Positions 36,095-46,027 of a stretch of DNA of 64,000 nucleotides are shown piece after piece. Below the pieces are notes generated by a model that had not been told where the DNA came from, made no database searches, and saw nothing but the letters and a program-made list of their open reading frames with translations. The DNA is from Steroidobacter gossypii (GTDB lineage Bacteria > Pseudomonadota > Gammaproteobacteria > Steroidobacterales > Steroidobacteraceae): NCBI RefSeq assembly GCF_016801985.1, contig NZ_JAEVLS010000005.1, positions 124,001 to 188,000 of the forward strand, written 5' to 3'. Each line of letters begins with the position of its first letter. Position 1 is the stretch's first letter. Both the position numbers and the translations under genes were made by a program.

Positions 36095-37093
36095 ATGAAC
36101 GAGTCAGAGAACATCCGGTTTACCGAGTTCCTTCGCGAGAAGGCGGCCGAGGCCAAGAGGGACCTCGGCTACAATCCAACGGACTTCCTCAAGATGCTGG
36201 GCGCTGACGGCGGTTATGCGACCGTCTCCAGGTTGATTGCCGATAAGAAGCCTTCAACTGGTTTCGTGAAGCTATGGGAACACCGGCGCTTGGACCTTTC
36301 AGTCGAAGCACTGGTGCTGGAAACAGAGTGGCGCCGCTTTTTCGAAGAATCGGCGCTCCAGCATGCCGCAGAACGGTTGATTGACGCGGGATATGCCCTG
36401 CAGCCATTGGAAGCATCCTCCCGCACGGAAAGGTTGCCCGCCGAGACTCTCAATAAGGCCACGCCGGAGTACATCTGGCGCGCAGTTCAGCAGCTCCTGG
36501 CCGGCGATGTTGTGCATTCGTTCGGTCCTTCGACCGATTACGATCTGATCGCCGATGACGGGCGTCGCTTGCCACCAAAGGCAGTGTTTGGCGTGGCGCT
36601 GTCCATCGCACTGGCGGGGACCAAGATCGAACCGAAGCATTTCACTGCGGGTGATACGTCCGCGTGCTTTCGCCTACTCAGAGCTGCTGGGTACCAGGTC
36701 GTGCCCAAGGGGGCGGCGGGAATCGAGCCCGATCTGGACGTGGAAGCGAACGCCGGATGGACCGAAGGCAAGCCGCGGCTCGTCGCTCACGTAAAGCGGG
36801 AGCGAGGCCAAGGAATTGCCCGAGCCAAGAAGGCTCAGCATCGACGTCTGCACGGAAGGTTGTTTTGCGAGCGCTGCAAGCTTGATCCAGTTGAGCATTT
36901 TGGAACAGAAGAAGGTGAGGCTTGCATCGAGGTTCATCACGCTGCGACTCACGTCAGGGAGATGGCGGAGGGACACGTGACTACGTTAGAAGATCTTCAG
37001 TGTCTGTGTGCAAATTGTCACAGGCTGCTGCATGCGTTGTTACGCGCAGGCAAAGAAGATGTGGCTGGTTCTGGGCGGCAGGCGGTGGGATGA
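36095..37093 (+). CDS. HNH endonuclease, McrA-like (possible modification-dependent restriction enzyme)
   Basis: 332 residues. The C-terminal zinc HNH domain is clear: CERC at 258-261, the catalytic HH pair 281-282 (EVHHAAT), and CANCH at 305-309. A middle domain (about 130-215, TDYDLIADDGRRLPPKAVFGVALSIA with SACFRLLRAAGY) resembles the N-terminal head domain of ScoMcrA-type type IV restriction enzymes that cut modified DNA. The first ~100 residues are helical with an unusual LGYNPTDFLKMLGADGGYATVSRLIADKKPS. That looks like a DNA-binding turn, perhaps a second recognition module. No methyltransferase is adjacent. GC content is lower than in neighbours, suggesting transfer. Confidence 0.8.
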   Translation: MNESENIRFTEFLREKAAEAKRDLGYNPTDFLKMLGADGGYATVSRLIADKKPSTGFVKLWEHRRLDLSVEALVLETEWRRFFEESALQHAAERLIDAGYALQPLEASSRTERLPAETLNKATPEYIWRAVQQLLAGDVVHSFGPSTDYDLIADDGRRLPPKAVFGVALSIALAGTKIEPKHFTAGDTSACFRLLRAAGYQVVPKGAAGIEPDLDVEANAGWTEGKPRLVAHVKRERGQGIARAKKAQHRRLHGRLFCERCKLDPVEHFGTEEGEACIEVHHAATHVREMAEGHVTTLEDLQCLCANCHRLLHALLRAGKEDVAGSGRQAVG

Positions 37094-37927: not shown

Positions 37928-40399
37928 TCATTGATTCGCAATTCGCAAGCGGTTGACCCGGACCTGCAGTTCGTCCGGTGGCATGTTGTTGATCGCCTGA
38001 ATGGACTCCTCAGGGGTCAACTTACGGCCGTCGGGGCTCAATGCGCCGCGGCGGCCTTCTTCCATCAGCAGAGGCACCACCGGCACGGACTGGTAGTACT
38101 TGTCTTCGCCCAGGTCGCCGATGATTCGAGCCGCTTCGGGCGTGAAGCCGGCGTCGATCAGGAACTGTTGTGACAACTCGATCTTCGCCTCCTTGTCTCG
38201 ATGCCCGGCCAGCGAACTGTTGCCAAACACCGAGATGCCCACCATCACCGAGCCAATCAACGCACCCGCCGGCCCGGAGGACAGGGCCATCACCACCGTT
38301 CCGGTGGCGCCGACCGCGTAGAGGCCGGCCTCGACATGTTTGTAGGGACGATCGGATAACAAAGCATCGACCATTTTCGCGACATCGCCGGTTGCTGAAA
38401 CCAGCCCGAGCGCGCGATTCCAATTTTCGAACCGCACGTCGGCGCGAATCGAGCGTTGTGTGTCGGCGAAGGAGCTGTCCGGTCCGACAGGCATGCTGCC
38501 AGGCCGGTGCATCAGATCGCGCACGTCCTTGGTCAGACCGGCGGCGTCGCCGAATGCGCCGATGGTGTTGGCCCAGCTCTGATCGCTGATGGCATCGCTG
38601 GTCGACTTGGCGAAGGTCAGGCCCGCGGCCGCCACGCCCAGGGATCGGAAAGTGATGCCCGCCGGCTGATCCGGATTGAATCCTTCGATGCCGCGCAACG
38701 CACTGTCGAACTGCTTGAGCCGCGTCTGCAGCAGAACCTGATTGTCGCCGGGCACATCCACGAGCTTGGAGAGCGCATCGATGGCCTGCTGATATTGCGC
38801 GGCGTCCTTGCCCAGCAGATTGGCGTAACGCGAGCCGAGTTGTTCCAGCCTGCTCTTGGCGTTGGCCACGCTGGCCGGATCGCTTCGATCGACCTCAGCG
38901 AACACCGCCAGCGCGTTTTGTTGAATCGCGTCCGAGGCCAGGCGTTTGAGGAATTCCGCGCCCTCCTTCGAAACCTTGTTCACGTCGAACAGGCTCAGCA
39001 TCGAGTCGGCCTTGGCGCCGACCAGGAAGTCACGATCGCGGGAGGCAGCCAAACCGATGGCCTGGAGCACGGAATCGCTATTCGCCAGCTGCTCGAGCTG
39101 CGACTGCAACTCGGGGTACGTCGTCTTCACGCTCTCAGGCAGCCCGTTCAAGCCCGCGAGTGTCTCTTTGAACAACTCACCGTGGCCGATCAGACGCTGC
39201 TCGAGCTGTTCGAACTTCGCCTTCCACTCCGGACCTTTGCCCTCGACATACTTCTCCACCGCCTTCGCGATAGCGTCCGGCGGCAAGCCTTCGGCGTACT
39301 TCAGAACGCGGCCGAGTTCGGCCAGCATGCCCTGGTATTCGGCGATATCCGCCTCGGTGCGTCGCTGCAATGCTTGCGCACCTTCGACAACGCCGCGCAA
39401 GACGATGCCGGACTCTTCAGTGCGCCCGCTCGCTTCCAACTGCCGTGCGATTTCCAACGCCAGCGCCGGACTTGCTCCATCGCGGATGGAATTGGAAATG
39501 TTTTCGCTCAGGGGCACCCATTGGCCGCGCCACTCGCTCGAGTGCGCAAGATAGGTCATCGCGATATCGCTGATGAGCTGCTGGGCCGCGGGACTATCGC
39601 CCAGCGAGCCCACCACACGCGCCATGTTCGTGTACGAACTGCCGCCGTACTTCTCGCCGGCGTACATTGGTTTGACCTCGGCGATCTTCATGATCGTATC
39701 GAGGTTCTGCGTCACCACCGCGGCGGCGAGTTCGGGCGGCAGTCCGGACGTGAGCTCCGCCAAACGGCGTGACGCCTCGTTGGCCGGCTGGATCTTTGCC
39801 TTGGGATCGCCGTTGTCTTGGAAGTTGGCGTATGGCTCAGCCACCCACGGCTCGACGCGCTCGCGCATCAACGTCGCGAGTTCTGGGCTCGTCGACAGCT
39901 GTGCGCGAGCTTCCGGGGAGAGCGACTGCCACTGGCTGTCGAGAATATTGATCACCGCCTGGGCATCGCCGCCGCCTGCCGCGACTCGAAGCGTGAAATC
40001 GACTTCGTGCTCGACTCTCAGTTCGTCAACCGCTCCGTTGATGACCTTCACCGTAGCGGGATCGTTGCCATAGCGGCCCGCAATGCTGCTGCCGTAGTGA
40101 TTGATGGTGCTGGCGTCATATACGGCGCCGGTCGGGCGCGCGCGAAACTCTTCCGCGTATCGCGCCTGCATCTCCGCATGAATAGCGGCTTTCAGCTCTG
40201 CGAGCGCCTCTGGCGTCGGCGACTGCTGATACTTCAGGACCGCCGCATCGGTGCGGTCTTTCGGAGTCTGCGCAGCTCGGTCCGCGGGCGCGGCGACGTT
40301 CATAACCTCCGGCCTGTGCGAGTCATCGGCGGTCAAGGTCGTGTCGACCAGGTTCTCAACGACGCGCGCTACGGAAGAGATTGCACTGAAGAATGTCAT
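37928..40399 (-). CDS. Large protein of unknown function with a C-terminal hydrophobic hairpin
   Basis: 823 residues, no signal peptide. Most of it is alpha-helical and acidic, with recurring helix pairs across about 90-560 (EARAQLSTSPELATLMRERV; ALEIARQLEASGRTEESG). Then comes a Gly/Ala-rich hydrophobic segment at about 693-732 (AVGATGTVVMALSSGPAGALIG) that looks like a membrane-inserting hairpin, and a soluble 91-residue tail. This architecture recalls large translocated effectors and pore-forming translocators of plant-associated gammaproteobacteria, but I recognise no family. GAGGCAGAAG precedes ATG 40399. It stands on the same strand 227 bases downstream of the permease-hydrolase fusion. 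Confidence 0.78.
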   Translation of the reverse strand: MTFFSAISSVARVVENLVDTTLTADDSHRPEVMNVAAPADRAAQTPKDRTDAAVLKYQQSPTPEALAELKAAIHAEMQARYAEEFRARPTGAVYDASTINHYGSSIAGRYGNDPATVKVINGAVDELRVEHEVDFTLRVAAGGGDAQAVINILDSQWQSLSPEARAQLSTSPELATLMRERVEPWVAEPYANFQDNGDPKAKIQPANEASRRLAELTSGLPPELAAAVVTQNLDTIMKIAEVKPMYAGEKYGGSSYTNMARVVGSLGDSPAAQQLISDIAMTYLAHSSEWRGQWVPLSENISNSIRDGASPALALEIARQLEASGRTEESGIVLRGVVEGAQALQRRTEADIAEYQGMLAELGRVLKYAEGLPPDAIAKAVEKYVEGKGPEWKAKFEQLEQRLIGHGELFKETLAGLNGLPESVKTTYPELQSQLEQLANSDSVLQAIGLAASRDRDFLVGAKADSMLSLFDVNKVSKEGAEFLKRLASDAIQQNALAVFAEVDRSDPASVANAKSRLEQLGSRYANLLGKDAAQYQQAIDALSKLVDVPGDNQVLLQTRLKQFDSALRGIEGFNPDQPAGITFRSLGVAAAGLTFAKSTSDAISDQSWANTIGAFGDAAGLTKDVRDLMHRPGSMPVGPDSSFADTQRSIRADVRFENWNRALGLVSATGDVAKMVDALLSDRPYKHVEAGLYAVGATGTVVMALSSGPAGALIGSVMVGISVFGNSSLAGHRDKEAKIELSQQFLIDAGFTPEAARIIGDLGEDKYYQSVPVVPLLMEEGRRGALSPDGRKLTPEESIQAINNMPPDELQVRVNRLRIANQ

Positions 40400-40626
40400 C
40401 GCTTCTGCCTCGGTATCCCTAAGACCAAAACCACGCTGATCGAGGAGTGCCCGCGGGGCTGCTCATCCTCCTAGGGAACATACCGGCTTCAGCGCTAGCA
40501 GGCGATGCACTTCAGCGCAGGCATAGCGACTGGTAGAAAAATTCGTGGTAGCGCCCGGACGTTTCGGACCGGGCCACGGACCCGGCTTCGAGGAACCTCG
40601 GAGATGAACAGCGCTCCGCGACTTGG
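40400..40626. other. 227-base gap between the permease-hydrolase gene and the large protein gene
   Basis: I see no gene. On the minus strand it must hold the leader of the 823-residue protein. Several GC-rich inverted segments (about 40548-40610) could form a hairpin after the hydrolase gene but lack a T-run. Promoter boxes are not clear. Confidence 0.35.
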
Positions 40627-43197
40627 CTAGGTGACGGGCAGATCTGCAACGAAATCGACGATGGCCTGCAATACAGCGTCTCGATGCGACAACATCACCC
40701 AATGCGATGCGCCGGGCAGCTCCGATACACGTGCCCCTTTGAGTTCGGCCCGAAACTTCTCGATCTCGCGTCGCTGCACGGCGTCTCTCATACTCTGCAG
40801 CTCACGCAGCTTTTGGCGCAGAGTCATGTCCGTAGCGTCGTGCCACGGCTTGAGCATTCCATCGGGACCGGCAGAGGTCGCATAGATTGCAAGCGCAGGC
40901 GCGGTGATGCTGCGATAGTCGGGACTGGAGATGCCGGCCTCGATGGCCTGTATGACGCGGGAGTCCACCGACCGCTGTCCCGCGAGATATCGCTTGTCGA
41001 CATTCCAAAGCGCAATCAGCTCACCTTCCGGAAGCGGGTCGGCCCCGGTTCGATCGAAGAATCCCAGCAATGACGTGTAAGACGACAGCTCCTCGGGTAA
41101 CGGGCGTGGTCGATCGGGAAGTGCGGCGCTCAATTCTCGATACCGCTTCGGCAAAGGCAACGAACGGTCGTATGCCGCATCCAAATAAATAAGCCCGGCG
41201 ACACGCCCAGCATGACGGGCGCCCAGCGTGCTGAGCTCTTCACCCGCAATCGAATGACCGGCGAACACAGCTCGACCGATTCCAAGTGCGTCCATCACTT
41301 CAATGACGTCCTGCGCCAGTCTCGCCTGGCTGTAACCGTGATCCGGGCGACTGGAGTAGCCGATACCGCGGCGGGTGATGCCCACGACTCGGAAATGTTG
41401 GGCGAGCAGCGGCCCGATTTCATCGAAGGAATGCGCCGTGGCGCCGAGGCCCGGCAGCAGCACCAATGCCGTGCCAGTGCCGCCCCAATCGAGTACTTCC
41501 AATTGGACATTGCTCGCCACCGCGATGGACTTGCTATCGTGCGCAGAGCGGTCGTTCCAGCTGGAGAGTCGCGGCGCCGCCGAATGAGTCACGGACGCAG
41601 GACAGTTCTCGCGGATGTCACCCAACCAGCCGGGGCTTCGCACGTGCACTGTTTTGAAGGCGTTCGCACGATAGGCGCTGACCTTGACGACTTCGGATTC
41701 GACCAGGTCCGGAGATCCGATGGACAACGTGACGCGCCGACTCTGCAGCAGACGTAGCGGCCACGGTGCGAAGTCCACGTTCTTCGAATCGACACGGCTT
41801 GCGGGCACGCCGTTCAATTCGGCGGCGATCATTGAGGGCAGCCGTCCAACGGCCAGGCATTCCACTGTGATGCGATCCTCGAGCGCATCGCGCATTGCGC
41901 GGCACGTACCGATGCCAGGCAGTCGACGATATTTTCCGTTCACGCTCAGCTGTGCGGAAGTGGGTTCGAGCACGGCGACCGAGTAGGCAAGGTCGAGCGT
42001 GGGTTCGGCGCCCTCATCGAGACGTTGCAGTACGGCTTGGGGTAACAGCCATGCGTGCGTCAGCGTCTCGATTTTCTCACCTCCGAAGCCGTTGCTACTG
42101 CCCGCGGCATGAAACGCCGGGCGCAGCCGCGCTATCGGCGTCTCGTCGGGCGCGTGATATGTGGCCCATGCGTACGCGACCTGTAAACGCCATTCATCCG
42201 GCAGTCCGCGTGGTCTGACTTGAGTGATAAAGGCCACTGCATCCTTGCCGGCCGCCTTCAAATGCTCATCTCCCCATCGATCCAGGGCGAACAGGCTCCT
42301 GGCATTTTCCGATTCGCCCCCTTCGGCGATCTCACCCAGGCGCGCAGCTGGAAAACACGCACGCGTGTGGCGTACTGCAGGCTCGGCCGCCTGGGCGTTT
42401 CGATCCGAGTCGGCATGCAGCGCCTGCTGCAGCCCGAAGCCGAATTGCCACGGCAGCAACAACATCGGGGCAACGATGGCTGCGATTCCAGCCACCAGGC
42501 CGGCGGCAAACGTCACGCGGGCCAGATAGGACGAGCGGCGCGCATAAGCAAACCAAAGGCAGGTTGCGGCCGCGATCATGAAGATCAGCTTGCCCGGAAA
42601 CATGCTCAGCCACTGCAGCCCGTTGTTCTGCATAGCTTCGCCCACCGTTAGATCTTCGGGGCCTGGCAGCGAGATGAACGGCGTCGGAACGACGAACACC
42701 GCAACGAACACAGCCAGCAGTACGCCGACGCCCTGAAGCATGCTGGCGGTACAAACCGCCGCCATCAGCACGATCGGCAAGTACAGCGGCTCGAACGAGC
42801 TCTGCCACAGCAGCGCGTCGAGCAACGCCGCTCCCAAGGGCTCCTGTCGTAGCAGATCGATCGCGAGCGTGGTCAACACCCGGGGCAGATAGATGACCAG
42901 CGTCAGCAGTAGCAACTTCGCAATCAGCAAAGCGCCGCGCGACACCGGCCGGCACAGCCAATCGTCCGTCAGGCTCACCGGTGGATCGGTCTGAATCACC
43001 GAGAAGATCGCCACGCTGTTGACGATGATCAGCAACAGAGGCAGCCAGGCTGTGAGCACCGGCCAGAGATCGGCTCTGCCCGCAACGACGGCCATCGCCT
43101 GCAACAGCGCCGTCAGCAGCAGCACCGGGCCGAGCGTCCGTGCGTCCTTGGTCAATATCGCAGTGATGACGCCGCGAAAGGTCCTGCTCGTTCCCAT
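40627..43197 (-). CDS. ABC-2 type permease fused to an alpha/beta hydrolase
   Basis: 856 residues in one uninterrupted frame. Residues 1-250 hold about six to seven hydrophobic helices, including one at PVLTAWLPLLLIIVNSVAIF, with a VSLTDDWLCRPVSRGALL block of ABC-2/YtrC-type permeases. A long hydrophilic middle (about 260-560) follows. From about 575 to the end is an alpha/beta hydrolase: VLLPGLGATAHSF, nucleophile elbow GHSIAGEE with S649, and His in GASHWVML near the end. It would be the membrane subunit of the adjacent ATPase, with the enzyme attached. I know no such fusion. Start ATG 43197; ATPase stop is nine bases upstream. Confidence 0.82.
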   Translation of the reverse strand: MGTSRTFRGVITAILTKDARTLGPVLLLTALLQAMAVVAGRADLWPVLTAWLPLLLIIVNSVAIFSVIQTDPPVSLTDDWLCRPVSRGALLIAKLLLLTLVIYLPRVLTTLAIDLLRQEPLGAALLDALLWQSSFEPLYLPIVLMAAVCTASMLQGVGVLLAVFVAVFVVPTPFISLPGPEDLTVGEAMQNNGLQWLSMFPGKLIFMIAAATCLWFAYARRSSYLARVTFAAGLVAGIAAIVAPMLLLPWQFGFGLQQALHADSDRNAQAAEPAVRHTRACFPAARLGEIAEGGESENARSLFALDRWGDEHLKAAGKDAVAFITQVRPRGLPDEWRLQVAYAWATYHAPDETPIARLRPAFHAAGSSNGFGGEKIETLTHAWLLPQAVLQRLDEGAEPTLDLAYSVAVLEPTSAQLSVNGKYRRLPGIGTCRAMRDALEDRITVECLAVGRLPSMIAAELNGVPASRVDSKNVDFAPWPLRLLQSRRVTLSIGSPDLVESEVVKVSAYRANAFKTVHVRSPGWLGDIRENCPASVTHSAAPRLSSWNDRSAHDSKSIAVASNVQLEVLDWGGTGTALVLLPGLGATAHSFDEIGPLLAQHFRVVGITRRGIGYSSRPDHGYSQARLAQDVIEVMDALGIGRAVFAGHSIAGEELSTLGARHAGRVAGLIYLDAAYDRSLPLPKRYRELSAALPDRPRPLPEELSSYTSLLGFFDRTGADPLPEGELIALWNVDKRYLAGQRSVDSRVIQAIEAGISSPDYRSITAPALAIYATSAGPDGMLKPWHDATDMTLRQKLRELQSMRDAVQRREIEKFRAELKGARVSELPGASHWVMLSHRDAVLQAIVDFVADLPVT

Positions 43198-43206
43198 GTG
43201 AGCTCG

Positions 43207-44106
43207 TTATTGCGCCTTGCGGCGATTGTGATCCTGCATCAGTGCGTTCGCGATGCTGCGTAGATTCATCGGCTCGGCGTATACGGAGACGGCGCCGAAA
43301 TGCTCCCTCACAGATGCGTGCAGCTGCTGGTCGTCGCGGTAGTCGCTCGTAATGAACTGCAGCTGATGACCCGCGACCTGCGGTAACAGCCAACCTGTCG
43401 GCAGCGGAGCTGGCAGACTCTGCTGTGCCGCCAGTCGCACGTTGACGTTACGAAAACGTTCTCGCAGCGTCTCGATTTGCTCCTGGATCAACAGCCGGCC
43501 GTCCTGCATGAAGGCCACATGCGTGGTGAAGCTTTCGATCTCCGTGAGCTCGTGCGATGAAATCAGGATGGTGGTGTCCTGGGCCTGCTGCAGCAGCCCA
43601 TTCACCACTTCGTCTCGCACCAGGGGATCGAGGCCGCTGAGCGGCTCATCGAGCACCAGCAGCTTCGGTCGAAACGCCAGTGCACCGACCAGCAGCAGCT
43701 TCATGCGCATGCCGTGCGACAGGTCCTTCAAGCGACGCTCCGAGGGCAGATCGAACTGGCGCAGCAACGCTTCTTCGAGCGCTACATCCCAGTTCGAATA
43801 CAAGCTGCGCAAATAGCCGAGGTATCGCGCCACATCGAGACGCTCTGGCAAGCGCTGGCTCTCGGAGGCGTAGCCGATGTGCTCGAAATGTCGGGAGGCG
43901 AGCAATGTGGAGCGCGTGCCCAGCACGTAGATCTCGCCCCGATCCGGCTGCAGGATGTTCAGTATCGTGCGGAGGGTGGTGGTCTTGCCGGCGCCGTTGG
44001 GACCGAGCAGCGCGAATACCGAGCCTTCGGGCACGCGCACGCTCACATCGCGAACTGCCTCGCAACCTCGATAGGTTTTGGCGAGCCCGTGCGATTCAAT
44101 CACCAT
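43207..44106 (-). CDS. ABC transporter ATP-binding protein
   Basis: 299 residues. Walker A GPNGAGKTTTLR at about 39-50, signature LSHGMRMKL (S-x-G), Walker B LLVLDEPLSGLDP and the switch His in ILISSHEL are all present, so an active ATPase. The layout matches YtrB/CcmA-type exporters' ATPases. The first 11 bases overlap the 3' end of the GntR regulator gene, and the permease-hydrolase gene begins nine bases after its stop, so this is an operon with translational coupling. ATG 44106 is preferred to 44166. Confidence 0.93.
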   Translation of the reverse strand: MVIESHGLAKTYRGCEAVRDVSVRVPEGSVFALLGPNGAGKTTTLRTILNILQPDRGEIYVLGTRSTLLASRHFEHIGYASESQRLPERLDVARYLGYLRSLYSNWDVALEEALLRQFDLPSERRLKDLSHGMRMKLLLVGALAFRPKLLVLDEPLSGLDPLVRDEVVNGLLQQAQDTTILISSHELTEIESFTTHVAFMQDGRLLIQEQIETLRERFRNVNVRLAAQQSLPAPLPTGWLLPQVAGHQLQFITSDYRDDQQLHASVREHFGAVSVYAEPMNLRSIANALMQDHNRRKAQ

Positions 44107-44500
44107 GTGACACAGCCTTGAGCCGTTGCAGACCGCGCCACTGCTCGGTGACAGCAGCGAGCACATCGTCCAGCGTTGCGCCGACCCGTATGGCCTCGAC
44201 CACGAGTTGTTCGATGTCCTGTTCCAGCAGGCGCTTGCGATCGCCAGAACGCGCTTTGGGCGGCTGCGCCACGAGCGTTCCGAGGCCCGGCTTGACGATC
44301 AGCCAGCGATCCTGAATCAGATGCTGAACGACCTTGTGCGCGGTATTTGGATGAATCTTGAGCGCCACCGCGAGCGCGCGCACGGACGGAAATGCCTCAC
44401 CCGGCTTCAGCTCGCCGGCCAGAATGGCGCGGGTGGCCGCAAAACAAACCTGCTCGAAGATCGATTGACCGGGATCGAGCTTTATCCTGAACGGAACCAT
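44096..44500 (-). CDS. GntR-family transcriptional regulator, YtrA subfamily
   Basis: 134 residues: the winged helix-turn-helix (about 11-78) with GELKPGEAFPSVRALAVALKIHPNTAHKVVQ, and a short helical C-terminal dimerisation part, the usual length of the YtrA subfamily. These regulators repress linked ABC transporter operons. Here it is the first gene, followed with an 11-base overlap by the ATPase. A matching inverted repeat stands just in front of the gene (44529-44551), consistent with autoregulation. The effector is unknown. Confidence 0.92.
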   Translation of the reverse strand: MVPFRIKLDPGQSIFEQVCFAATRAILAGELKPGEAFPSVRALAVALKIHPNTAHKVVQHLIQDRWLIVKPGLGTLVAQPPKARSGDRKRLLEQDIEQLVVEAIRVGATLDDVLAAVTEQWRGLQRLKAVSHGD

Positions 44501-44528
44501 GCCGCACCCACGTTACTCGGTGCATCCA

Positions 44529-44551
44529 GTGTAACAGCCGTACTGTGACAC
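44529..44551. promoter_or_regulatory. Inverted-repeat operator of the GntR/ABC operon
   Basis: gtgtaacag - 5-base spacer - ctgtgacac: nine-base arms with a single mismatched position. The site begins 29 bases before the regulator's start codon (44500, minus strand). A promoter reading TTTACA ... TACACT, with about 19 bases between them on the minus strand, overlaps it. Placement and symmetry fit a YtrA-type repressor site. Confidence 0.65.
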
Positions 44552-44609
44552 CTGTAAATGCCCAGGCGTCACAATCGCACTTTGCGCCACCGTTCGTGCA
44601 GCGACGGCG

Positions 44610-44882
44610 TCAAGCGACCGACAACGCCGCCGCAAGTTGCGCGGCGCTGACGCCATCGACTTCGACGGTCTTGCGTCGGCTCGTCAAACCGGCAGTGATA
44701 CGCACCCGGGACTTTGCGACATCCAACTGTTCGGCGACGAATTCGATCAACGCGGCATTGGCGGCGCCGTCGACGGGAGGTGCGGCCAATCTTATTTTGA
44801 TGCAGCCATCGTGCATGCCGACGACGGCAGTCTTGCTTGCCCGCGGTTGGACATAGACGTTGAGGCGCGCTGAATCGGACAT
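44610..44882 (-). CDS. YggU/DUF167 family protein
   Basis: 90 residues. The DUF167 pattern is complete: [38 protein letters not shown] and [17 protein letters not shown]. The family is small, conserved and of unknown function. It starts eight bases after the stop of the membrane protein gene upstream (44891), so the two are probably co-transcribed. Confidence 0.93.
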
Positions 44883-44890
44883 TGTGAAGC

Positions 44891-46027
44891 TCAGCGCTCC
44901 AGCTGGCGCGCCAGCTCGCCGGCGATGCGTTGAGCCACGTCATCGTTGTAACGATCCGAGAAACCTTGGAGCAGCATACGAGCCGTGCGGCGATCGCCGG
45001 CGTCACGGGCGAGCTCGATCAGTTTGATGGTGTCGCTGCCGTCTAGAGGTTTGAATTGGTCATCGCTGCGCAATTGCCTGCGAGCGATGTTCAGAGCATC
45101 GCCGGTACGACGCGATGCGAGCAGTCGAGGAATCAACTCTTGAGCCAAGCGATATGCGAGTCTCGGATCTGGCCACTGCGAGGCGCGTTCGAACAAATCT
45201 TTCAGATCCTCGCCCGGTAGCGAGCTGCTTTCCAAATGAGTTTGAATGGCGCGCCAGGCGTTGCCGTACGCGCCGCCGCGCCACTCGGCGAAGATGCGAT
45301 CGACGAGCATATCGATCTGCCGCTCACGTTCCCGCTGAGCTTTCTCAGCCTCGCGCTCGGGCGAACGCGACGGCTCGAACCCCAACTCGTGACGCCGCAC
45401 ATACAAAACACCGCCCAGCATGGCGAATGACGCCAGCCACGCATACATCAGGATGAAAATTCGCACCGTCTCCGGCAGCGGGATCTCGATGGACAGCGGC
45501 AGCTCGGCGGCTGGCAGCCAAGTGACGAGCATCGTCGCCAGCCACCACGCGCCCGCGAGCACAGCAAGCACCAGCGCATAGCTTCCGGGCACACGCAGGA
45601 TGACTTGTAACAACACGAGGGGATTCAGCGCTTGAGCAAAGCTGCCCGCCGCTTGAGTCATGATCACCGCGGGCACGAGCACCAAGCCAGCCGCACGCAA
45701 AAGGGTCACAGCTTCTTCGCCGAACCATGCACCCATTGCAGCGGTGACCACATAGAAAATCGTGACGACGAGCACCAGCCCAGCCGGCCGTGACTCGTTC
45801 ACGGGATTGACCATTTCATACGAAAGCACGGGAGGCTCGTTCACGCCGTCCGCCACCCGATCGAGCAGTGCGAAGCCGTATTTGAAGAACCAGGAAACCA
45901 CCAGCAACGCCAATGGCAAGCCGAGCAGCCCACCGTGGGCCGCCAGCAATAACAGGATACTGAATGAAACAACCAGAACCAGCGCCGCCCCGCGCAGGGG
46001 AATCAGCAGGTATTTGAGCGTCTCCAT
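44891..46027 (-). CDS. DUF4013-like membrane protein with a helical repeat tail
   Basis: 378 residues. Residues 1-225 have about six hydrophobic segments ([56 protein letters not shown]), and the remainder (about 240-378) is a soluble charged region resembling TPR repeats ([29 protein letters not shown]). The function is not known. Starts at 46027 and 46036 are both possible, with no strong Shine-Dalgarno. It precedes YggU by eight bases. Confidence 0.7.

What the first reader, a model, noticed from the sequence alone, without database searches (positions are those of the whole stretch)
40627..44551. GntR-ABC operon whose permease is fused to an alpha/beta hydrolase
The order is a YtrA-type regulator, an ABC ATPase (11-base overlap), then one continuous 856-residue frame. 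In that frame an ABC-2-like membrane domain, a ~300-residue hydrophilic middle and a complete alpha/beta hydrolase (GHSIAGEE, S649; HGASHW-type His) are joined. YtrA operons normally encode separate permeases. Attaching a hydrolase would place an enzyme at the transport site, for example to process a lipid, ester or lipopeptide as it is moved. I know of no described family with this fusion. A misassembly or a lost stop codon would be the dull explanation; the reading frame and codon style are uniform across the join.
Basis: partly seen in the sequence, partly recalled or inferred. Interest (0 to 1): 0.78.

Follow-up and report, generated by a model that had tools for sequence, protein, structure and literature searches.

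The report
ABC transporter fused to periplasmic hydrolase
A soil bacterium carries a repressor-controlled membrane pump whose membrane protein has an ester-cutting type of enzyme attached, apparently on the outer face of the inner membrane; relatives with and without the attached enzyme show that the fusion is real and kept by selection, but what it pumps or cuts is not known.

Summary
Window 40627-43197(-) is one 856-residue frame: a membrane part, a ~285-residue hydrophilic part and a complete alpha/beta hydrolase, behind a 134-aa YtrA-like regulator and an ABC ATPase (11-base overlap). It is not an assembly artefact: three further homologues (58, 40, 41% identity) cross the same join behind the same two genes. 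All lie in Steroidobacteraceae; no other was found in the samples searched. The four fusions group together (100/99), nearest to an unfused permease that stops where the hydrolase would begin. Ser649, Asp673 and His832 are kept in all four, and the hydrolase is the best-conserved part. Helix parity and a positive last loop point to a periplasmic C-terminus; two stand-alone relatives of the hydrolase look exported. A YtrA-like palindrome precedes the regulator in 9 of 9 loci that hold it. One sibling carries NHL repeats at the same place. Permease-enzyme fusion has a precedent, ABC-2/M1 peptidase (PMC3924187). Substrate unknown; most likely a YtrA-repressed exporter that moves an amphiphilic ester and cleaves it on the periplasmic side.

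The parts
44529..44551 (-). Probable YtrA-type operator, GTGTCACA-N7-TGTTACAC, 28 bases before the GntR start codon
   Evidence: like sites before the regulator in 9 of 9 loci (0-3 mismatches to GTGTCACA-N7-TGTGACAC; the pattern was taken from three of them); only site with up to 2 mismatches in the 7.1 Mb genome, but the backward control pattern also gives one
44096..44500 (-). YtrA-like GntR regulator, 134 aa, without a large effector domain
   Evidence: PF00392 E 2.4e-10; PmtR model E 4e-8, below its cut-off
43207..44106 (-). ABC ATPase, 299 aa, ATG at 44106, overlaps the GntR gene by 11 bases
   Evidence: PF00005 E 1e-23; PmtA model E 5.9e-45, below its cut-off
40627..43197 (-). Fusion protein, 856 aa: permease + middle domain + alpha/beta hydrolase
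42433..43197 (-). Membrane part, residues 1-255: N-terminal helix and up to seven membrane helices, N-in, C-out; ABC-2-like stretch DWLCRPVSRGALLIAK
41578..42432 (-). Middle domain, residues 256-540, predicted mostly beta; cysteines 281, 432, 447, 532 kept in all four fusions, C432 and C447 in 11 of 11 family members
41554..41598 (-). Low-confidence linker at the join, residues 534-548
   Evidence: pLDDT below 50
40627..41577 (-). Alpha/beta hydrolase domain, residues 541-856 and stop
41251..41253 (-). Ser649, predicted nucleophile, directly after predicted strand 643-648
41179..41181 (-). Asp673 in YLDAAYD, predicted catalytic acid, directly after predicted strand 666-672
40702..40704 (-). 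His832, predicted catalytic base

Best explanation
A YtrA-repressed ABC exporter with its own periplasmic serine hydrolase. The GntR protein binds the palindrome at 44529-44551 and keeps the operon off until an inducer appears. The ATPase drives a dimer of the fusion protein. The membrane part moves or lifts an amphiphilic ester or lactone (a lipid, lipopeptide or membrane-active natural product) to the periplasmic face, where the hydrolase (Ser649-Asp673-His832), tethered by the cysteine-bearing middle domain and a flexible linker, cleaves it so that it cannot re-insert. Shown here: the fusion, its kinship with unfused siblings, selection on all parts, conserved catalytic residues, the conserved palindrome, the gene order. 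Inferred with good support: periplasmic side, active enzyme, autoregulation, one fusion event. Only inferred: the dimer, that one substrate is both moved and cut, and that it is an amphiphilic ester.
For: Four fusions in one group 100/99. Catalytic S/D/H in 4 of 4 fusions; hydrolase the most conserved segment in all six pairs. Net positive loop before the last helix and positive N-terminus in 11 of 11; C-out whether or not the two helices at 136-169 cross. Cysteines 432 and 447 in 11 of 11. Two stand-alone relatives of the hydrolase begin with signal-like stretches, judged by eye: Variovorax with a twin-arginine-like and an LAAC motif, Spirosoma with a hydrophobic N-terminus. Operator-like palindrome in 9 of 9, like the published YtrA site (PMC8060467). 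The best NCBIfam match of the ATPase and second-best of the regulator are PmtA and PmtR, of a peptide exporter with its own GntR repressor (PMC5080381 abstract). Solved folds ranked high include esterases, lactonases and the membrane phospholipase A 6i8w.
Against: No substrate evidence; neighbouring genes differ between loci. The PmtA and PmtR scores are far below their cut-offs. YtrBCDEF gave no consistent role in antibiotic survival in a recent study (PMC12772383 abstract). Topology is my hand assignment: the loop between helices 2 and 3, supposed to be inside, is not net positive in 9 of 11, and the 42 residues after the last helix are net positive in 5 of 11. Placement of the domains in the model is unproven (pTM 0.61). 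Pfam does not certify the permease as ABC-2.
Confidence: 0.42

Rival explanations
1. Tethering only: the hydrolase acts on periplasmic or membrane esters independently; the fusion merely anchors it and puts it under YtrA control.
For: Stand-alone relatives look exported on their own; low-confidence linker; 6i8w, a membrane phospholipase A, is the third-ranked fold.
Against: Four fusions in two sub-groups kept all parts under selection, and the ATPase and regulator genes stand before each.
Confidence: 0.25
2. ATP-gated enzyme: nothing is transported; the ATPase cycle is passed through the membrane part to switch the periplasmic hydrolase on and off, as recalled for FtsEX and MacB-type proteins.
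For: A large middle domain lies between the last helix and the enzyme; PMC12772383 (abstract) links the ytr transporter to the cell-wall cycle rather than to drug survival.
Against: Helix number and the DWL.RPV.R..L..AK stretch are closer to ABC-2 permeases than to the four-helix MacB/FtsX plan (recalled); unfused siblings show that the transporter exists without the enzyme.
Confidence: 0.2
3. The hydrolase lies in the cytoplasm and processes the substrate before export.
For: Ordinary ABC-2 permeases end in the cytoplasm (recalled); loop charges are not uniformly in favour of my topology.
Against: Net positive loop before the last helix in 11 of 11, invariant cysteines, exported-looking stand-alone relatives.
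Confidence: 0.1
4. Assembly error or lost stop codon in this genome.
For: None found.
Against: Same fusion in three other loci at 40-58% identity.
Confidence: 0.01

Closest known systems
ABC-2 permease/M1 aminopeptidase fusions (Myxococcus Q1D520, TC 3.A.1.145.1)
   Same: ABC-2-type membrane part with a hydrolytic enzyme fused at the C-terminus; one is in this very genome (G000:C11, 1219 aa, PF01433 E 1.6e-11), directly after an ABC ATPase gene
   Different: Zinc peptidase instead of serine hydrolase; 13 helices in Q1D520; in this genome no GntR-like frame within the 1.1 kb listed before the ATPase (by eye)
Bacillus subtilis YtrGABCDEF
   Same: GntR repressor in the operon; published site AGTGTA-13-TACACT, i.e. 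GTGT-N15-ACAC (PMC8060467 passages); that outer pattern is exact in 6 of the 9 loci here, the window included
   Different: Several separate transporter proteins, no enzyme fusion (recalled)
Staphylococcus PmtR and PmtABCD
   Same: Best NCBIfam match of the ATPase, second-best of the regulator; GntR repressor of its own exporter
   Different: Scores far below the curated cut-offs; no enzyme fusion (recalled)
PlaF, membrane phospholipase A (6i8w)
   Same: Membrane-held alpha/beta hydrolase, third-ranked fold
   Different: 22% identity; no ABC partner known to me (recalled)
Stand-alone alpha/beta hydrolases of Spirosoma (L031) and Variovorax (L032) plasmids
   Same: 34% and 60% (two pieces of the split Spirosoma gene) and 31% identity; GHSIAG and YLD motifs
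   Different: Not fused; own signal-like N-terminus

Membership tests
YtrA subfamily of GntR regulators | GntR winged-helix domain in a short protein without a large effector domain | tested here: met
   PF00392 E 2.4e-10 in 134 aa
YtrA subfamily of GntR regulators | In one operon with an ABC transporter | tested here: met
   regulator also found before ATPase and permease in L009, L020, L052, L037, L053, L054, L056, L058; none found in L055 (contig ends inside the ATPase) and L057
YtrA subfamily of GntR regulators | Inverted repeat of GTGT-N15-ACAC type before its own gene | tested here: met
   palindrome in 9 of 9 loci with 0-3 mismatches; outer GTGT-N15-ACAC exact in 6 of 9, not in L009, L037, L058; binding not tested
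ABC-2 type permease | Match to an ABC-2 family model above cut-off | tested here: not met
   no match in the window protein, L009, L020, L052 or L053; below cut-off in L037, L056, L058
ABC-2 type permease | Profile similarity to ABC-2 permeases around the stretch after the second helix | tested here: inconclusive
   hhalign 98 columns, E 2.4e-4 but probability 43.7%
ABC-2 type permease | Six membrane helices, both ends in the cytoplasm (recalled) | tested here: inconclusive
   seven helices predicted, C-terminus outside
Alpha/beta hydrolase, serine type | Fold | tested here: met
   PF12697 E 1.1e-19; Foldseek 3kxp E 1.6e-14
Alpha/beta hydrolase, serine type | Nucleophile, acid and His | tested here: met
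   S649, D673, H832 in 4 of 4 fusions and both stand-alone relatives; the usual acid position after the strand at 768-774 is not conserved; activity not tested
ABC-2/M1 peptidase fusions (TC 3.A.1.145) | M1 peptidase domain | tested here: not met
   only Abhydrolase matches
PmtABCD/PmtR | Score above the NCBIfam cut-off | tested here: not met
   PmtA 153.7 bits against 350; PmtR 33.3 against 200

The most novel reading that the evidence does not exclude
A previously undescribed family of YtrA-controlled ABC transporters in Steroidobacteraceae whose membrane subunit ends in a cysteine-bearing periplasmic domain that serves as a docking place for exchangeable modules: none in six siblings, an alpha/beta hydrolase in four, NHL repeats in one. 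The hydrolase form would be a one-protein extract-and-cleave machine: ATP lifts an amphiphilic ester out of the inner membrane straight into the enzyme.
Probability: 0.3. Interest if true: 0.72.

Novelty: new variant of a known kind. Interest (0 to 1): 0.52.

Why it matters
ABC exporters are usually thought of as moving intact molecules. A transporter with a conserved, covalently attached serine hydrolase, apparently periplasmic, offers a direct way to ask whether transport and chemistry are coupled, and the unfused relative that ends at the join is a natural control. What YtrA-controlled transporters handle is unsettled; an attached enzyme gives a biochemical handle, since substrates can be screened with a soluble domain.

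Tried and rejected
Artefact: rejected by three other loci with the same join. Anti-phage system: PADLOC gave no match for the fusion or the regulator, and ten ATPase-type models for the ATPase. RNA element in 40000-45500: none at the gathering threshold. Relatives in viral contigs: none for either half. Plasmids: none for the permease part; 452 records with some hydrolase match, 8 covering at least 80% of it. L010 (Actinomycetes MAG) is a stand-alone hydrolase frame, not a fusion. First structure model with 3 rows was poor (pLDDT 51.5) and was not used; the second, with 15 rows, gave 83.1. Gene neighbours as a clue to substrate: none in common in those looked at; beside L020 a TraB/GumN-family gene, after L037 a signal-like DUF3471 gene, after L009 an aldo-keto reductase. 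Middle domain: no solved relative by sequence (none; two matches at E 0.35 and 0.42); of the 50 Foldseek rows shown of 1638, those whose titles name an enzyme are alpha/beta-hydrolase enzymes, so nothing was learned about it.

Counts and their limits. (all 217 genomes of the family offered, profile of three fusions, E up to 0.01): 15 matched. I fetched stretches of all but the two already in hand. Nine genomes hold true members, 11 genes in all: 4 hydrolase fusions in 3 genomes, 1 NHL fusion, 6 unfused in 5 genomes. The other six (G225, G199, G1116, G287, G1131, G249; E 2.4e-4 to 0.0042) are chance: no frame in those stretches scored better than E 0.27 against the 11-row profile and no regulator- or ATPase-like frame stood by. 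Note that L058 (G193) had a weaker score, 0.006, than these six; it counts as a member because of the regulator, ATPase and alignment. Genus: 2 of 14. Order sample: 2 of 296 at E up to 1e-20. Class samples: 1 of 369 and 1 of 350, both times the own genome; at most 3 or 4 candidates per genome were scored, so distant relatives may be missed. Family sample with the 11-row profile: 6 of 157. Hydrolase alone: 1 of 398 in the phylum at E up to 1e-40, 7 of 196 in the order at E up to 1e-18, the six others at 69-72 bits against 610 for the window. The scan of named genome contigs uses exact 8-residue patterns and did not return L020. L009, L019, L022 and L060 are one gene, as are L020, L023 and L063, and are counted once.

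Mended after checking: operator lies 28, not 29, bases before the start codon; outer GTGT-N15-ACAC is exact in 6 of 9, not all; the six weak matches were fetched and tested; topology charges against my reading were added, and the odds of a cytoplasmic enzyme raised from 0.08 to 0.10 for that reason.
Full report
Where it lies. The window is G000:C27:124001-188000 of a 7.1 Mb genome. That makes the family Steroidobacteraceae; the other loci cited come from the same family.

The observation. The three genes are present as described: GntR 44096-44500(-), ABC ATPase 43207-44106(-) with an 11-base overlap, and the 856-residue frame 40627-43197(-), 9 bases after the ATPase stop. Pfam finds the hydrolase, the ABC ATPase and the GntR domain, and nothing in residues 1-540 of the fusion.

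The fusion is real and shared. The named Steroidobacter MAG (L009, CALMII010000006.1) encodes a homologue over residues 4-854 at 58% identity. The same genome holds a second copy (L020, 40%) on a 9.3-kb contig. A fourth lies in G1098, another genus of the family (L052, 41%, frame open to the contig end). Regulator and ATPase stand in front of each. Differences that change an amino acid are rarer per site than silent ones in each segment of all six pairs, with silent sites near saturation, and the hydrolase is the most conserved segment each time (window against L009: 57% membrane part, 47% middle, 70% hydrolase).

Unfused siblings. Among the 217 genomes of the family, nine hold true members of this permease family, 11 genes (six further weak matches proved to be chance). 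Six are without hydrolase, 494-556 aa, each next to an ABC ATPase gene. One, L037, ends in SSCPAP at the place where the fusions go on into the hydrolase. In a tree of the 11 permease parts the four fusions are one side of a branch with support 100/99, and L037 joins them at 100/100. The tree is rooted at its midpoint for drawing only, so 'sister' and 'one origin' assume that the root lies elsewhere; one origin is not ruled out, rather than proved. The gene after L037 on the same strand starts with a signal-like stretch and has a DUF3471 domain. A permease gene fusing with a following gene for an exported protein would fit, but that route is inference. L058 in G193 carries NHL repeats at its C-terminus (TEN_NHL E 1.6e-7, NHL E 1.9e-4). 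Its permease matched the first profile only at E 0.006 and forms a long branch, but it follows the same kind of regulator and ATPase. L058 was a member of the later profile, so its strong score is no independent proof.

Which side of the membrane. I assigned helices by hand from hydropathy averaged over 11 relatives. The N-terminus and the loop before the last helix are net positive in 11 of 11, as expected inside. Against this, the loop between helices 2 and 3, which should also be inside, is net positive in only 2 of 11, and the 42 residues after the last helix are net positive in 5 of 11. The AlphaFold model built on 15 rows (pLDDT 83.1, pTM 0.61) shows an N-terminal helix 3-21, then helices 23-42, 46-69, 87-116, 136-149, 153-169, 195-220 and 223-247. 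The pair 136-169 may or may not cross; either way the number of crossings is odd and the C-terminus is outside. Two cysteines of the middle domain (432, 447) are invariant in 11 of 11 and two more (281, 532) in the four fusions and L037, as expected of disulfides outside the cytoplasm. Two stand-alone relatives of the hydrolase, on Variovorax and Spirosoma plasmids, begin with signal-like stretches, judged by eye; no signal predictor was run.

The enzyme. Ser649 directly follows strand 643-648, Asp673 directly follows strand 666-672, and His832 comes four residues after strand 823-828. Ser, this Asp and His are kept in four fusions and both stand-alone relatives, whereas no acid is conserved after the strand at 768-774. 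This resembles enzymes that take their acid from the earlier strand (LinB type, recalled). L052 has GSSIAG for GHSIAG, still with the serine. High-ranked solved folds include esterases, lactonases, epoxide hydrolases, dehalogenases and the membrane phospholipase A 6i8w, at 16-23% identity in the 50 rows shown; they do not fix a substrate.

The switch. A palindrome like GTGTCACA-N7-TGTGACAC stands before the regulator in all nine loci in which a regulator was found (of 11 loci searched), with 1, 1, 0, 0, 3, 1, 1, 1 and 3 mismatches (window, L009, L020, L052, L037, L053, L054, L056, L058). The pattern was taken from the first three, so the other six are the test. The second-best site in each stretch has 5-7 mismatches, except in L052, which has a second overlapping site with 2. 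The outer geometry GTGT-N15-ACAC is exact in 6 of 9, the window included, and equals that of the B. subtilis YtrA site AGTGTA-13-TACACT (PMC8060467, passages read). In the 7.1 Mb genome it is the only site with up to two mismatches, and the backward control pattern also gives one, so the single hit is near chance by itself; conservation among loci carries the argument.

What is known. ABC-2 permease fused to M1 aminopeptidase is described for Myxococcus (PMC3924187, passages read), and the present genome has one too. Searches for a described fusion with an alpha/beta hydrolase found none: 0 papers; 1 paper each, PMC3924187; 20 papers, 15 listed, none of these with the hydrolase term. The library holds open-licence papers only. 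YtrBCDEF: PMC8060467 (passages), PMC12772383 (abstract and section list). Pmt: PMC5080381 (abstract and section list). PlaF: PMC9132575 (search listing only).

Verdict. A real, rare and selected fusion, probably of one origin; a new variant of a known kind (permease fused to hydrolytic enzyme). That the enzyme is periplasmic and active is likely; that it cleaves what the permease moves is the best guess, not a result.

Noticed in passing
L058:4401-6464 (G193): Same permease family with NHL repeats at the C-terminus instead of a hydrolase; the repeat part looks short for a full propeller, and by eye no continuation was seen in the three forward frames after it.
   Followed up: partly
L033:2018-5677 (G000:C11): ABC-2 permease/M1 aminopeptidase fusion of 1219 aa in the window's own genome, directly after an ABC ATPase gene.
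   Followed up: partly
L037, below 522 on the - strand: A gene with a signal-like start and a DUF3471 domain follows the unfused permease on the same strand and runs to the contig end.
   Followed up: partly
L020:97-1119 (-): TraB/PrgY/GumN-family gene directly after the second fusion, one base from its end.
   Followed up: no
L052, before the regulator: Two overlapping operator-like palindromes (0 and 2 mismatches) instead of one.
   Followed up: no
L057:3532-5903: ATPase and unfused permease directly behind what looks like a drug-efflux and outer-membrane-factor gene pair, without the regulator (gene types by eye).
   Followed up: no
window 37928-40399 (-): 823-aa protein without a Pfam match above cut-off, just downstream of the operon.
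   Followed up: no
window 36095-37093 (+): 332-aa protein with an HNH-nuclease-like Cys/His pattern near its C-terminus (by eye).
   Followed up: no
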